Shown here piece by piece: positions 56,685 through 60,721 of a stretch of DNA of 64,000 bases (the first letter of the stretch is position 1; each line of letters begins with the position of its first letter). The position numbers and the translations under genes are program-made. The DNA comes from Paraburkholderia phenazinium (GTDB lineage: Bacteria > Pseudomonadota > Gammaproteobacteria > Burkholderiales > Burkholderiaceae), in assembly GCF_900142845.1 (NCBI RefSeq), contig NZ_FSRU01000002.1, positions 2,914,001 to 2,978,000 of the forward strand, in the 5' to 3' direction. The notes beneath the pieces are model-generated. The model had not been told where the DNA came from, made no database searches, and was given only the letters and a program-made list of their open reading frames with translations.

Positions 56685-56700
56685 TGGCATAGGGCTTGCA
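56685..56700 (+). promoter_or_regulatory. Sigma-54 promoter of first Thr-Pro lipoprotein gene
   Basis: TGGCATAGGGCTTGCA matches the -24/-12 consensus: GG at -24 and GC at -12 exactly 12 bases apart. The start site should be near 56711, 30 bases before the ATG. The same element precedes the paralog. Confidence 0.85.
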
Positions 56701-56740
56701 GTTAGCTCCCCCACCGGTTTAAAGACAGGGGAGCAAAAAC

Positions 56741-58654
56741 ATGAAGCGCAATTTCCAGATGACGGCCATCGCCATGTGCGTGTCGTCAGTGATGATTCTC
56801 CAAGGCTGCGGGACAACGGTGAATAAACCACCGACAGTCGGCAGCGGTTCGGGAAGCGGTACCTTAGGCACGGGCGGGGGTTCGGGCGCTGGGTCCGGTT
56901 CGGGGTCTGGGTCGGGTTCGGGTTCGGGCGGGGGTACGCATACGCCGACGCCGACGCCGACTCCGACTCCGACTCCGACTCCGACTCCGACGCCGACGCC
57001 GACGCCGACGCCAACGCCGACGCCTACTCCGACGCCTACTCCGACGCCCACACCGACGCCGACTCCGACGCCGACGCCGACTCCGACTCCGACTCCGACT
57101 CCGACGCCAACACCGACGCCGACTCCGACACCCACGCCGACTCCGACTCCGACACCGACACCGACACCGACACCGACACCGACACCGACGCCGACGCCGA
57201 CTCCGACTCCGACGCCGACGCCGACGCCGACGCCGACGCCGACGCCGACTCCGACTCCGACTCCGACTCCGACTCCGACTCCGACGCCGACGCCGACGCC
57301 GACGCCGACGCCGACGCCGACGCCGACGCCGACGCCGACACCAACGCCGACACCCACGCCAACGCCAACACCCACGCCCACACCGACACCAACGAGCGCC
57401 AACCCCATCGGCGTCGTCGTCCAGAACACCGGCAACGTCGTCACCGCCACCGGCCAGACCGTCTCGTCAATCGGCAGCCAGATCGGCCTCACCCCGATCC
57501 CCGGCGGCAACTCCGCGACCACCGCCGCGCTCGGCAACGTCCTGTCCAATCTCGGCAATGGTGTCACCGCCGTCGGCATGGGCGCGACCAACGGCCTCGG
57601 CCAGCTTGGCGCCTCGGCCAATCCGCTTGGCGTCACCCTGTCGAGCAGCGGCAACCTCGTCTATGACGCCGGCCAGGCCGTCAACAGCGCCGGCCAGCTC
57701 GTCACCAGTCTCGGCACCGGTCCGACCGCGGCCCTCAGCCCGTTGACCACCCCGCTCGGCAGCACGGTCTCCACACTCGGCAACGCCGTCAGCGGACTCG
57801 GCACCCAGCTCGGCACGGCCCTCTCCACCGGTCCGATCGAGCAGGTCACGCAGTCGGTCAGCACCGTCATCACGCCGATCACCACCACCGTCGCCCAGAC
57901 GACGCAGACCATCGGCAACACCACCGGCCTCGGCGCGCCGCTCAACGGCCTGCTCTCGACCATCGGCCATGGCCTGGACAGCGCAGGCAGCCAGATCAGC
58001 AGCGCAACCGGTAACCCGATCGGCCAGAACCTGGGCAACGTGGTCACCAAGCTCGGCGACACCGTCACGTCCGCCGGCGGCCTGCTGACCGGCGGCACGG
58101 GTGGCAATCCGCTGGCGCCTATCACCGGCATCCTCAGCGGCGGTACCAACCCGCTCAGCGGGACGCCGCTGGCACCGCTCACCAGCATCCTGACGGCCTT
58201 GCCCGGCACGCTGAGCGGCGGCCTCACCGGCGGCAGTTCGGGTAACCCGCTCGCTCCGCTCACGGGTGTGCTGACCTCGGTGACCTCGTCGCTGACGGGG
58301 GCACTCGGCGGCGCCAGTGGCGGCTCGGGCAGTCCGCTTGCGCCGCTGACCGGCATCCTGACCTCGGTCACCGGTGCGCTCGGCGGGGCCAGCGGCGGCT
58401 CCGGCAATCCGTTGGCGCCGGTCACCTCGGCGGTCTCGTCGCTGACCGGTGCGCTGGGTTCGGCAACCGGCGGTGCGACCGGATCCGGTTCGTCTGGCGG
58501 ATCGGGTTCAGGCGGGTCCGGCTCAGCCGGCAACCTGCTGGCGCCGCTCACGGGCCTCGTCTCCTCGCTCACCGGCGGGCTGACCGGCGCGACCTCGGGT
58601 AGCGGGTCCGGTACCACGGGCGGCCTGCTCAGCGGACTCGCAGCGAAAAAATAA
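56741..58654 (+). CDS. Thr-Pro-repeat stalk lipoprotein, long copy (637 aa)
   Basis: An outer-membrane or surface lipoprotein: signal peptide with MILQGC lipobox (Cys near 23), a Gly/Ser linker, then 75 exact Thr-Pro dipeptides (56942-57391) forming a probable extended stalk, and a C-terminal region with degenerate repeats. The latter has about 30-residue units of Gly/Thr/Leu-rich sequence ([19 protein letters not shown] and variants), called collagen-like in some annotations but without strict Gly-X-Y periodicity. It ends SGLAAKK, with no autotransporter or sortase signal. CAGGGGAG precedes the ATG. Roles in adhesion or matrix are plausible but not established. Its neighbour is a near-identical copy. 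Confidence 0.82.
56942..57391 (+). repeat. (ACNCCN)75 hexanucleotide array encoding 75 Thr-Pro
   Basis: A run of 75 uninterrupted 6-base units (ACG/ACT/ACA then CCG/CCA/CCC) with patches of identical units, as expected from slippage. The corresponding array in the downstream copy has only 23 units. Confidence 0.96.
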
Positions 58655-58719
58655 CGACAGTAGATAAAAAGAAGCACTAAGGGGGGCGGCGGGCCGGGCA
58701 ACCGGTCCGCCGTTTTTTT
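57391..58719 (+). repeat. Long direct repeat, copy 1 (about 1.3 kb)
   Basis: From AACGAGCGCC (57391) through the terminator, nearly identical to 59409-60721. I see only scattered single-base differences and one 15-base indel (near 58500). Confidence 0.9.
58687..58719 (+). terminator. Terminator after long Thr-Pro gene
   Basis: CGGCGGGCCGG (58687-58697) pairs with CCGGTCCGCCG (58702-58712) around GCAA, then seven T. Confidence 0.9.
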
Positions 58720-59030
58720 ATCGCGCGGACGCGAACAACCCCTCCGCCGATCGGGCCGTCCGCGGCGGCGACCTATTTCGCGCGGGTCGCGCGCACCGGA
58801 CCGACTGTGTTGCAGTGTTTGAAAGTGCGATCAAGACCGGCTCGGCGCGCCGCTTTGCGGCGAGTGAGATCGCTAGAAACGCGCCGCGTTGCGTTACGTT
58901 ACACGCGCCGGACGCGAGGTTTTGTTCCGCGACACATCGCTGCTCGCAGCGACTGCCGGAATCGTCATCACATCCCGCACACCCTTGATTCTTCTAGGTT
59001 TACTTCGGACGACCGATCACATCGCACGAA

Positions 59031-59046
59031 TGGCATAGGGCTTGCA
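59031..59046 (+). promoter_or_regulatory. Sigma-54 promoter of second Thr-Pro lipoprotein gene
   Basis: TGGCATAGGGCTTGCA, identical to the element in front of the first copy; expected start near 59057. The preceding 140 bases are also duplicated, so the shared activator sites are likely inside them. Confidence 0.85.
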
Positions 59047-59085
59047 GTTAGCTCTCCATCAGTTCAATGACGGGGGAGCAGAGAC

Positions 59086-60657
59086 ATGAATCGCAATTTC
59101 CAAATGACGGCCATCGCCATGTGCGTGTCGTCGCTGATGATTCTTCAAGGTTGCGGCACAACGGTCAACAAACCGCCGACAACTGGCAGCGGCGCGGGAG
59201 GCGGTACGGTAAGCACGGGCGGGGGTTCGGGTGGAGGCTCGGGTGCCGGTGGTTCGGGTGGAGGCACGTCGACACCGACTCCAACTCCGACGCCCACACC
59301 GACTCCGACACCTACTCCGACACCGACGCCAACACCGACGCCGACGCCGACACCAACGCCGACACCGACACCCACACCGACGCCGACACCCACGCCAACA
59401 CCGACACCAACGAGCGCCAACCCCATCGGCGTCGTCGTCCAGAACACCGGCAACGTCGTCACCGCCACCGGCCAGACCGTCTCGTCAATCGGCAGCCAGA
59501 TCGGCCTCACTCCGATCCCCGGCGGCAACTCCGCGACTACCGCCGCGCTCGGCAACGTCCTGTCCAATCTCGGCAATGGCGTCACCGCCGTCGGCATGGG
59601 CGCGACCAACGGCCTCGGCCAGCTTGGCGCCTCGACCAATCCGCTTGGCGTCACCCTGTCGAGCAGCGGCAACCTCGTCTATGACGCCGGCCAGGCCGTC
59701 AACAGCGCCGGCCAGCTCGTCACCAGTCTCGGCACCGGTCCGACCGCGGCCCTCAGCCCGTTGACCACCCCGCTCGGCAGCACGGTCTCCACACTCGGCA
59801 ACGCCGTCAGCGGACTCGGCACCCAGCTCGGCACGGCCCTCTCCACCGGTCCGATCGAGCAGGTCACACAGTCGGTCAGCACCGTCATCACGCCGATCAC
59901 CACCACCGTCGCCCAGACGACGCAGACCATCGGCAACACCACCGGCCTCGGCGCGCCGCTCAACGGCCTGCTCTCGACCATCGGCCATGGCCTGGACAGC
60001 GCAGGCAGCCAGATCAGCAGCGCAACCGGTAACCCGATCGGCCAGAACCTGGGCAACGTGGTCACCAAGCTCGGCGACACCGTCACGTCCGCCGGCGGCC
60101 TGCTGACCGGCGGCACGGGTGGCAACCCGCTGGCGCCTATCACCGGCATCCTCAGCGGCGGTACCAACCCGCTCAGCGGGACGCCGCTGGCACCGCTCAC
60201 CAGCATCCTGACGGCCTTGCCCGGCACGCTGAGCGGCGGCCTCACCGGCGGCAGTTCGGGTAACCCGCTCGCTCCGCTCACGGGTGTGCTGACCTCGGTG
60301 ACCTCGTCGCTGACGGGGGCACTCGGCGGCGCCAGCGGCGGCTCGGGCAGTCCGCTTGCGCCGCTGACCGGCATCCTGACCTCGGTCACCGGTGCGCTCG
60401 GCGGGGCCAGCGGCGGCTCCGGCAATCCGTTGGCGCCGGTCACCTCCGCGGTCTCGTCGCTGACCGGTGCGCTGGGTTCGGCCACCGGCGGTGCGGCGGG
60501 ATCCGGTTCGTCAGGCGGGTCCGGCTCGGCCGGCAACCTGCTGGCGCCGGTCACGGGCCTCGTCTCCTCGCTCACCGGTGGGCTGACCGGCGCGACCTCG
60601 GGTAGCGGGTCCGGTACCACGGGCGGCCTGCTCAGCGGACTCGCAGCGAAGAAATAA
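59086..60657 (+). CDS. Thr-Pro-repeat stalk lipoprotein, short copy (523 aa)
   Basis: Same architecture as the upstream copy: MILQGC lipobox, Gly/Ser linker, Thr-Pro array, C-terminal repetitive domain. Here the array has 23 dipeptides instead of 75. The C-terminal domain is almost residue-for-residue identical, differing by one five-residue deletion near the end and a few substitutions, so the pair arose by recent tandem duplication or is kept alike by gene conversion. GGGGGAG precedes the ATG. Confidence 0.82.
   Translation: MNRNFQMTAIAMCVSSLMILQGCGTTVNKPPTTGSGAGGGTVSTGGGSGGGSGAGGSGGGTSTPTPTPTPTPTPTPTPTPTPTPTPTPTPTPTPTPTPTPTPTPTPTPTSANPIGVVVQNTGNVVTATGQTVSSIGSQIGLTPIPGGNSATTAALGNVLSNLGNGVTAVGMGATNGLGQLGASTNPLGVTLSSSGNLVYDAGQAVNSAGQLVTSLGTGPTAALSPLTTPLGSTVSTLGNAVSGLGTQLGTALSTGPIEQVTQSVSTVITPITTTVAQTTQTIGNTTGLGAPLNGLLSTIGHGLDSAGSQISSATGNPIGQNLGNVVTKLGDTVTSAGGLLTGGTGGNPLAPITGILSGGTNPLSGTPLAPLTSILTALPGTLSGGLTGGSSGNPLAPLTGVLTSVTSSLTGALGGASGGSGSPLAPLTGILTSVTGALGGASGGSGNPLAPVTSAVSSLTGALGSATGGAAGSGSSGGSGSAGNLLAPVTGLVSSLTGGLTGATSGSGSGTTGGLLSGLAAKK
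59272..59409 (+). repeat. (ACNCCN)23 hexanucleotide array
   Basis: Twenty-three Thr-Pro codon pairs; compare 75 in the upstream gene. Confidence 0.95.
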
Positions 60658-60721
60658 CGACAGCAAATAAAAAGAAGTACCAGGGGGGCGGTGGGCCGGG
60701 CAACCGGCCCGCCGTTTTTTT
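59409..60721 (+). repeat. Long direct repeat, copy 2 (about 1.3 kb)
   Basis: Counterpart of 57391-58719. Recombination between the two direct copies would delete about 2 kb and fuse the genes. Confidence 0.9.
60689..60721 (+). terminator. Terminator after short Thr-Pro gene
   Basis: CGGTGGGCCGG (60689-60699) pairs with CCGGCCCGCCG (60704-60714) around GCAA, then seven T. Confidence 0.9.

What the first reader, a model, noticed from the sequence alone, without database searches (positions are those of the whole stretch)
56685..60721. Tandem sigma-54-driven lipoproteins with stalks of 75 and 23 Thr-Pro repeats
Two adjacent genes share a signal peptide, linker, C-terminal domain, terminator and sigma-54 promoter, but their Thr-Pro arrays differ more than three-fold. 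The pattern suggests surface lipoproteins whose display length is tuned by repeat slippage, with gene conversion keeping the functional domain the same. The combination of variable stalk length, constant head and sigma-54 control is unusual and the head domain has no known activity.
Basis: partly seen in the sequence, partly recalled or inferred. Interest (0 to 1): 0.75.

Follow-up and report, generated by a model that had tools for sequence, protein, structure and literature searches.

The report
Stalked lipoproteins under a dedicated switch
Two neighbouring genes in a Paraburkholderia-like bacterium make near-identical protein heads on repeat stalks of very different length, and they belong to a known family of probably sticky surface lipoproteins that seems to have its own DNA switch, perhaps worked by a quorum-sensing regulator.

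Summary
In detail: gene A (75 Thr-Pro) and gene B (23 Thr-Pro) are lipoproteins with sigma-54 boxes, matching terminators and nearly identical heads. The head is not unknown: it is Pfam PF15984 (Collagen_mid), the 'Bcc-CLP' class, whose B. cenocepacia member BCAL1524 promotes autoaggregation. New here are the control and the modularity. CGTTACGTTAC stands 125-130 bp before the -24 box in 33 of 33 aligned relatives (gene A has one changed base). As a composite pattern it occurs 66 times in 97 genus genomes, 0 in the reversed control; 62 sites precede this family, 3 are promoter-terminator remnants, 1 is unrelated. In 239 Burkholderiaceae genomes the family co-occurs with one sigma-54 activator, the GtrR/BCAL1536 orthologue beside the Tad pilus cluster (132 both, 5 discordant, 102 neither). 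Next to one conserved gene the copy number is 0, 1, 2 or 4, and the stalk is Thr-Pro or Ser-Ser-Ser-Gly. Heads are homogenised within genomes, stalks are not; two species share the stalk order 17/124/74/24 and 17/123/68/38. Slippage and gene conversion are supported; tuned display length, surface location and rpoN/GtrR dependence remain inferences.

The parts
56546..56556 (+). upstream activator element of gene A, CGTAACGTTAC, 128 bp before the -24 box
56577..56591 (+). second conserved upstream element of gene A, TGTTCC...GACACAT
   Evidence: A/B alignment; footprint of 33 relatives
56685..56700 (+). sigma-54 -24/-12 box of gene A, TGGCATAGGGCTTGCA
56741..58654 (+). gene A, Collagen_mid lipoprotein, 637 aa
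56741..56809 (+). gene A lipoprotein signal peptide, lipobox LQGC, Cys23
   Evidence: read from sequence
56942..57394 (+). gene A stalk, 75 Thr-Pro units plus Thr (151 residues); block-structured units
57497..58093 (+). gene A PF15984 domain (residues 253-451), 225 bits
58695..58719 (+). gene A terminator-like hairpin and T run
58892..58902 (+). upstream activator element of gene B, CGTTACGTTAC, 128 bp before the -24 box
58923..58937 (+). second conserved upstream element of gene B
59031..59046 (+). sigma-54 -24/-12 box of gene B
59086..60657 (+). gene B, Collagen_mid lipoprotein, 523 aa
59086..59154 (+). gene B lipoprotein signal peptide, lipobox LQGC, Cys23
   Evidence: read from sequence
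59272..59412 (+). gene B stalk, 23 Thr-Pro units plus Thr (47 residues)
59515..60111 (+). gene B PF15984 domain (residues 144-342), 225.9 bits
60697..60721 (+). gene B terminator-like hairpin and T run

Best explanation
A and B are lipoproteins of the PF15984 'Bcc-CLP' class that hold a nearly uncharged head away from the membrane on a low-complexity spacer, here a Thr-Pro rod, and work in cell-cell or surface adhesion. Both are transcribed when a sigma-54 activator bound at CGTWACGTTAC, 128 bp upstream, opens the -24/-12 promoter. The most likely activator is the GtrR (BCAL1536) orthologue encoded at C2:407719 at the end of the Tad/Flp pilus cluster, so the lipoproteins would be switched on with a surface-attachment programme and, if the B. 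cenocepacia circuit holds here, by BDSF quorum sensing through RpfR. The pair arose by tandem duplication; gene conversion keeps the heads alike, while promoters, N-termini and stalks stay distinct; A's array grew by local duplication of 6-bp units, which never breaks the frame. SHOWN by sequence: family, architecture, conserved upstream site and spacing, co-occurrence, conversion pattern, array structure. INFERRED: surface display, adhesion, GtrR binding, sigma-54 dependence, function of stalk length.
For: PF15984 at 225 bits, cut-off 31. CGTTACGTTAC in 33 of 33 aligned upstream regions of TP/SSSG-stalk relatives (gene A, left out of that alignment, has CGTAACGTTAC); also in the divergent Tad-linked class. 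Spacing 125-130 or 139-142 bp in the 47 upstreams in which both sites were found. Composite pattern: 66 hits in 97 genus genomes, 0 in the reversed control; 60 before an ORF that matches my HMM of the family's heads, 2 before family N-termini cut by a contig end, 3 promoter-terminator remnants, 1 unrelated. Activator/family co-occurrence: genus 54 both, 2 family only, 1 activator only, 40 neither, Fisher 1.2e-23; Burkholderiaceae 132/2/3/102, 2.7e-61. The activator matches PDB 7vbs full length at 860 bits, and both ends of 7vbs fit the gtrR primers printed in PMC8174753. In B. cenocepacia BCAL1523/1524 are induced together with Flp genes on contact with host membrane (PMC7970998, passages); BCAL1524 is in outer-membrane vesicles and its deletion lowers autoaggregation (PMC10303873, passages).
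Against: No expression or binding data here. The activator gene is physically linked to one family pair (about 13 kb), so part of the co-occurrence is gain or loss of one island, and the Fisher tests ignore phylogeny. It is one of 14 strong PF00158 matches in this genome, and no other activator was profiled. Its recognition half is 83-93% identical in eight other genera, but the AAA domain is 65-91% too, so this is only weak support for a conserved DNA site. PMC10303873 saw no biofilm role for BCAL1524. The flp promoter has no GG-N10-GC site. In genus g3 the composite also precedes a 144-164 aa protein without a Pfam match, and several more g3 rows were not read. Upstream sites are missing or weak in some family genes (L173, L189, L264). 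G019, G249 and G259 have the family but no activator hit, as has G038 (G019's Tad-side locus runs into a contig end). RpfR/RpfF were not looked for.
Confidence: 0.6

Rival explanations
1. Same lipoproteins and same sigma-54 promoter, but a different activator (one of the other 13 strong PF00158 proteins in this genome, or a BerB-type c-di-GMP regulator) binds CGTTACGTTAC.
For: 14 strong PF00158 matches in the genome; BerB activates a sigma-54 biofilm gene in B. cenocepacia (PMC5552954, passages). No competitor was profiled, so none is excluded.
Against: GtrR presence agrees with family presence in 234 of 239 genomes, and GtrR sits 12.6-13.2 kb from a family gene in 10 of the first 12 genomes.
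Confidence: 0.27
2. One reading: repeat slippage is an adaptive tuner of display length, and gene conversion maintains the head.
For: A's array is block-structured, 36 runs against 55.4 +- 3.4; 11 to 124 units over 48 entries (gene B counted twice); conversion pattern.
Against: B's array shows no block structure (22 runs against 20.1); nearest relatives resemble each other in count (mean |log2 ratio| 0.74 against 1.08 shuffled, p = 0.0028, within-genome paralogues included); two species share the order 17/124/74/24 and 17/123/68/38. No isolate series was examined.
Confidence: 0.3
3. Stalk length and chemistry are close to neutral: any hydrophilic spacer does, and lengths drift by slippage.
For: Beside the same MFS gene the stalk is Thr-Pro in most species and Ser-Ser-Ser-Gly in L057, L058, L060 and L061; other family members use TSG, GTG or Asn/Gly runs.
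Against: Similar length series in P. acidicola and G048, although the codon patterns of the long arrays differ for the most part (the short copy-1 arrays are also alike in sequence).
Confidence: 0.35
4. The Thr-Pro segment spans the periplasm (TonB-like spacer) and the head works inside the envelope, for example at the Tad machinery.
For: The sister family pair is divergent from a Tad cluster; Pro-rich periplasm spanners are known (recalled).
Against: A's 151-residue stalk would be about 47 nm as polyproline II (0.31 nm per residue is recalled), longer than the periplasm (recalled); BCAL1524 was found in outer-membrane vesicles (PMC10303873), which does not fix its side.
Confidence: 0.12

Closest known systems
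Bcc-CLPs (PF15984 Collagen_mid lipoproteins; BCAL1523, BCAL1524, BCAL2397, BCAM0695, BCAM1598)
   Same: PF15984 domain, lipoprotein signal, N-terminal tandem repeats that vary between orthologues, several copies per genome, one pair beside the Flp/Tad operon (PMC10224339)
   Different: Stalk is pure Thr-Pro instead of Gly-Thr-Ser triplets; not linked to Tad but between an MFS and a cupin gene; sigma-54 control is not described in PMC10224339 (the word 'sigma' does not occur in its text)
RpfR-GtrR (BDSF quorum sensing) of B. cenocepacia
   Same: Orthologous sigma-54 activator at the end of the Tad cluster
Collagen-like proteins with true Gly-X-Y triple helices (Scl, Bucl; recalled)
   Same: Surface-adhesin style and database name
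   Different: No contiguous Gly-X-Y stalk here; head predicted all-helical at modest confidence (pLDDT 69); Bcc members share under 15% identity with known bacterial collagen-like proteins (PMC10224339)
Flp/Tad pilus genes
   Same: Tad linkage of the sister pair; induction together in B. cenocepacia (PMC7970998)
   Different: Not pilins or assembly proteins; flp of this genome lacks the sigma-54 box

Membership tests
PF15984 / Bcc-CLP lipoproteins | Collagen_mid domain above the curated cut-off | tested here: met
   225 and 225.9 bits, cut-off 31.1
PF15984 / Bcc-CLP lipoproteins | lipoprotein signal peptide | tested here: met
   lipobox LQGC, Cys23, read from sequence; no signal-peptide predictor was on hand
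PF15984 / Bcc-CLP lipoproteins | N-terminal low-complexity tandem repeats | tested here: met
   TP arrays
PF15984 / Bcc-CLP lipoproteins | over-represented GTS triplets in the repeats (typical, not obligatory: BCAL2397 is listed without GXX' repeats) | tested here: not met
   the stalks of A and B are Thr-Pro
PF15984 / Bcc-CLP lipoproteins | outer-membrane or vesicle location | not testable with these tools
   reported for BCAL1524 (PMC10303873)
collagen-like triple-helix proteins | contiguous Gly-X-Y triplets | tested here: not met
   read from the translations
sigma-54-dependent genes | -24/-12 box, GG-N10-GC | tested here: met
sigma-54-dependent genes | upstream activator site | tested here: met
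   conserved element at fixed spacing; binding itself not tested
sigma-54-dependent genes | loss of expression without rpoN | not testable with these tools
   needs a mutant
GtrR regulon | a GtrR orthologue in the genome | tested here: met
   full-length match to 7vbs; at the end of the Tad cluster
GtrR regulon | GtrR binds the promoter | not testable with these tools
   needs EMSA or ChIP
GtrR regulon | RpfR/RpfF partners in the genome | not tested

The most novel reading that the evidence does not exclude
A dedicated, family-wide regulon: GtrR, reading CGTTACG half-sites at a fixed distance from a sigma-54 box, is devoted mainly to PF15984 lipoproteins in Burkholderiaceae. Within it some species carry a 'stalk-length ladder': near-identical heads, homogenised by gene conversion, on several maintained stalk lengths (17, about 124, about 70, 24-38 units), giving one adhesive head at several heights above the cell, with the rod chemistry exchangeable beside one and the same neighbour gene.
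Probability: 0.28. Interest if true: 0.78.

Novelty: new variant of a known kind. Interest (0 to 1): 0.6.

Why it matters
GtrR is a global quorum-sensing regulator; in the passages and searches made here I met no description of its DNA site or of sigma-54 targets. An 11-bp site plus sigma-54 box that picks out one adhesin-like lipoprotein family in 62 of 66 genus-wide hits makes both directly testable, and would link an understudied surface family (autoaggregation and insect virulence in B. cenocepacia) to cell-density signalling. The tandem arrays are a natural experiment on stalk length with the head held nearly constant by gene conversion.

Tried and rejected
Rejected: frame-switching phase variation (units are 6 bp); true collagen (no Gly-X-Y stalk). 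Not excluded: other activators, BerB included (no CGTTAC site seen in the passages of PMC5552954).

Limits of the counts. Genus co-occurrence: three weak activator hits (G003, G009, G051; E 1e-7 to 4e-6; none has the family) were not counted; counted, activator-only would be 4, not 1. Family co-occurrence: G003 and G009 likewise left out; G102 (5e-23) and the split hit of G291 (2e-12) kept. The Fisher values are descriptive: no species tree was at hand. The alignment took rows with a good sigma-54 box; one search shows that this dropped no row with an upstream (37 TP/SSSG rows: 35 with box, 2 cut by a contig end, and of the 35 the two L002 rows were left out). In the other classes 21 of 44 rows had a box; many of the rest are second genes of pairs or cut. 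The 60 'family' calls rest on an HMM I built from the loci, many ORFs being cut at the fetched stretch. Family-level scan: 61 of 239 genomes hit, only the first 30 loci classified: 26 by HMM, L202 and L225 after correcting the start (L202 also by Pfam), 2 others; further g3 rows that look like the 2 others were not read. One search scored at most 12 candidates a genome, so copy numbers there may be low. One search gave 23 loci, 14 yielded an ORF: 12 with box and half-site, L173 and L189 without. L261 (g10) and L263 (g5) with box and half-sites, L264 (g16) one half-site and a weak box, no family gene found in L262 (g11). The nearest-neighbour test includes within-genome paralogues. Within-species repeat variation was not examined.

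Literature: searches listed no paper in the held library that joins this family to sigma-54 or prints the site (one unrelated mosquito hit for the 11-mer); listings, abstracts and passages only, and the original GtrR paper is not held, so a described site may exist there.

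Full report
OBSERVATION. Genes A (56741-58654, 637 aa) and B (59086-60657, 523 aa) are as described: lipoprotein signal (LQGC, Cys23), Gly/Ser linker, 75 and 23 Thr-Pro units, a long Gly/Thr/Ser-rich C-terminal part and a terminator-like hairpin. The sigma-54 boxes TGGCATAGGGCTTGCA at 56685 and 59031 are the only two hits of TGGCAY-N5-TTGCA in the window, against 0.09 expected. The window lies in an 8.5 Mb, three-contig genome (C2:2914001-2978000); the 28 named relatives found are Paraburkholderia or Burkholderia.

WHAT THE HEAD IS. 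Both heads match Pfam PF15984 'Bacterial collagen, middle region' at 225-226 bits. This is the class called Bcc-CLPs in the B. cepacia complex (PMC10224339, section 9 read in full, the rest in passages): mostly predicted lipoproteins, with repeats that vary between orthologues and under 15% identity to known bacterial collagen-like proteins. One member, BCAL1524, was found in outer-membrane vesicles; its deletion lowered autoaggregation and virulence in Galleria, with no biofilm effect in the conditions tested (PMC10303873, passages). BCAL1523/1524 were induced with the Flp pilus genes on contact with host-cell membrane (PMC7970998, passages), and BCAL1524-1520 and BCAL1525-1537 are described as two putative operons (PMC2753556, passages). 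Mature B has 9 D/E/K/R/H of 501 residues and one aromatic. An AlphaFold2 model is all-helical at modest confidence and has no convincing structural relative; 'collagen' looks like a misnomer, but no fold is assigned.

RELATIVES AND LOCUS. The family is in 56 of 97 genus genomes and in 134 of 239 Burkholderiaceae genomes, 10 of 25 genera. This genome has a second, divergent tandem pair at C2:392-395 kb. Among 28 named loci plus two longer stretches (30 in all, P. acidicola twice), the MFS neighbour was found in 22 and the cupin neighbour in 18; six loci have neither. Beside this MFS gene the copy number is 2 in the window, 4 in P. acidicola and in G048, and one copy was seen in the other loci with that neighbourhood. 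In G052, G001 and G042 (L111, L124, L157) the promoter and the family's terminator lie between the MFS and the cupin gene with no coding sequence between them. The stalk is Thr-Pro in most and Ser-Ser-Ser-Gly in L057, L058, L060 and L061, which share the MFS neighbour but show no cupin gene; PF15984 is retained (L057, 207 bits).

CONTROL REGION. An alignment of 33 upstream regions from TP- or SSSG-stalk relatives has CGTTACGTTAC in 33 of 33, then TGTTCC-N-CACAT, TTGATT and the sigma-54 box; gene A, not in that alignment, has CGTAACGTTAC. The Tad-linked class has CGTTACG/CGTAACG half-sites plus CGTTACGT(T/G)AC in most of 21 rows. In the 47 upstreams in which both sites were found the spacing is 125-130 or 139-142 bp. 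The 11-mer alone occurs 4 times in the genome, fewer than its reversed control (11); two of the four are upstream of family genes. The composite CGTTACGTKAC-N117..147-KGGCAY-N5-TTGC has 66 hits in 97 genus genomes (45 genomes) and none for the reversed pattern. All 66 were read: 60 precede an ORF matching my family HMM, 2 a family N-terminus cut by a contig end, 3 are the promoter-terminator remnants, 1 is unrelated (two duplicate rows dropped). In the family-level scan 61 of 239 genomes hit, none in the control; of the first 30 loci 28 are family genes and 2 (genus g3) precede a 144-164 aa protein with no Pfam match. A box with half-sites upstream of family genes was read in genera g1, g3, g12 and g24 and g5 and g10; L173, L189 and L264 lack the site or have it weakly.

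THE LIKELY ACTIVATOR. Beside the second pair stands a Tad/Flp cluster: an Flp-like pilin (by eye), RcpC/CpaB, secretin, a TadZ-like protein (below cut-off), T2SSE ATPase, Tad/Tad_C; then a 463-aa protein with PF00158 and HTH_8. The last matches PDB 7vbs over its full length at 860 bits; both ends of 7vbs fit my translation of the gtrR primers printed in PMC8174753 (passages). It is therefore taken as the orthologue of GtrR, BCAL1536, the RpfR partner in BDSF quorum sensing (PMC12838280, PMC9684580, PMC5295037, passages). Co-occurrence of its N-terminal domain with PF15984: genus 54 both, 2 family only (G019, G038), 1 activator only (G085), 40 neither (three weak hits not counted); Burkholderiaceae 132, 2 (G249, G259), 3 (G102, G205, G308), 102 (two weak hits not counted). 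G038 has no composite site and another, unclassified ORF upstream of its family gene; G019's Tad-side family locus runs into the start of its contig. In the first 12 rows, 10 have the activator 12.6-13.2 kb from a family gene, and 2 (G004, G059) have them on different contigs. In eight other genera the recognition half of its HTH is 83-93% identical, the AAA domain 65-91% and the N-terminus 45-75%. Linkage and shared ancestry inflate these counts, and 14 strong PF00158 matches exist in the genome. GtrR control is likely, not shown.

HOW STALK AND HEAD EVOLVE. Between A and B synonymous codon differences are 9 of 36 in the N-terminus and 11 of 414 in the head (on one search's split 8 of 32 against 5 of 247, Fisher 1.1e-5). 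G093 has two copies 14 kb apart: N-termini 12 synonymous and 7 other differences in 32 codons, heads 3 synonymous in 260, stalks 44 and 92 units. In the four-gene arrays of P. acidicola and G048, copies 2 and 3 have nearly identical heads within a species (11 and 3 synonymous differences of 250) but 73 of 247 between species, and the stalks read 17/124/74/24 and 17/123/68/38. Promoters match by position for copies 1 (0.926) and 2 (0.874); copy 3 of P. acidicola fits G048 copies 3 and 4 equally (0.858, 0.863), and copies 4 fit no better (0.811) than other pairs, so copies 3 and 4 are paired by order only. One pair (P. acidicola copies 2 and 3) does not by itself separate N-terminus from head (p = 0.22). 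Gene conversion of heads is thus well supported; that stalk length belongs to a position is suggested by two species. Over 48 TP-stalk entries (gene B twice) counts run from 11 to 124; nearest relatives resemble each other more than shuffles (p = 0.0028) but still differ. A's array is block-structured, B's is not.

MECHANISM AND VERDICT. The best reading is a pair of adhesion-type lipoproteins with spacer rods (about 47 and 15 nm if polyproline II) under a dedicated sigma-54 switch, probably worked by GtrR. It is a new variant of a known family; its control and its stalk-length series are the parts worth testing.

Noticed in passing
L111, L124, L157 (G052, G001, G042), between the MFS and cupin genes: Intact upstream site and sigma-54 box followed directly by the family's terminator with no coding sequence: a gene-loss remnant or a tiny sigma-54 RNA unit, seen in three genomes.
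   Followed up: partly
L229:1712-2203 and L231:1717-2148 (genus g3): The same composite precedes a 144-164 aa protein that looks receiver-like by eye and has no Pfam match: a possible second target class.
   Followed up: partly
L103 (G038): Family gene kept although no activator was found and another, unclassified ORF stands upstream.
   Followed up: partly
window 56741-60657: The mature proteins have almost no charged or aromatic residues (B: 9 D/E/K/R/H and 1 aromatic in 501 residues).
   Followed up: no
L232 and L233 (P. acidicola, G048): Four-gene arrays with a similar order of stalk lengths and arrays up to 124 Thr-Pro units.
   Followed up: yes
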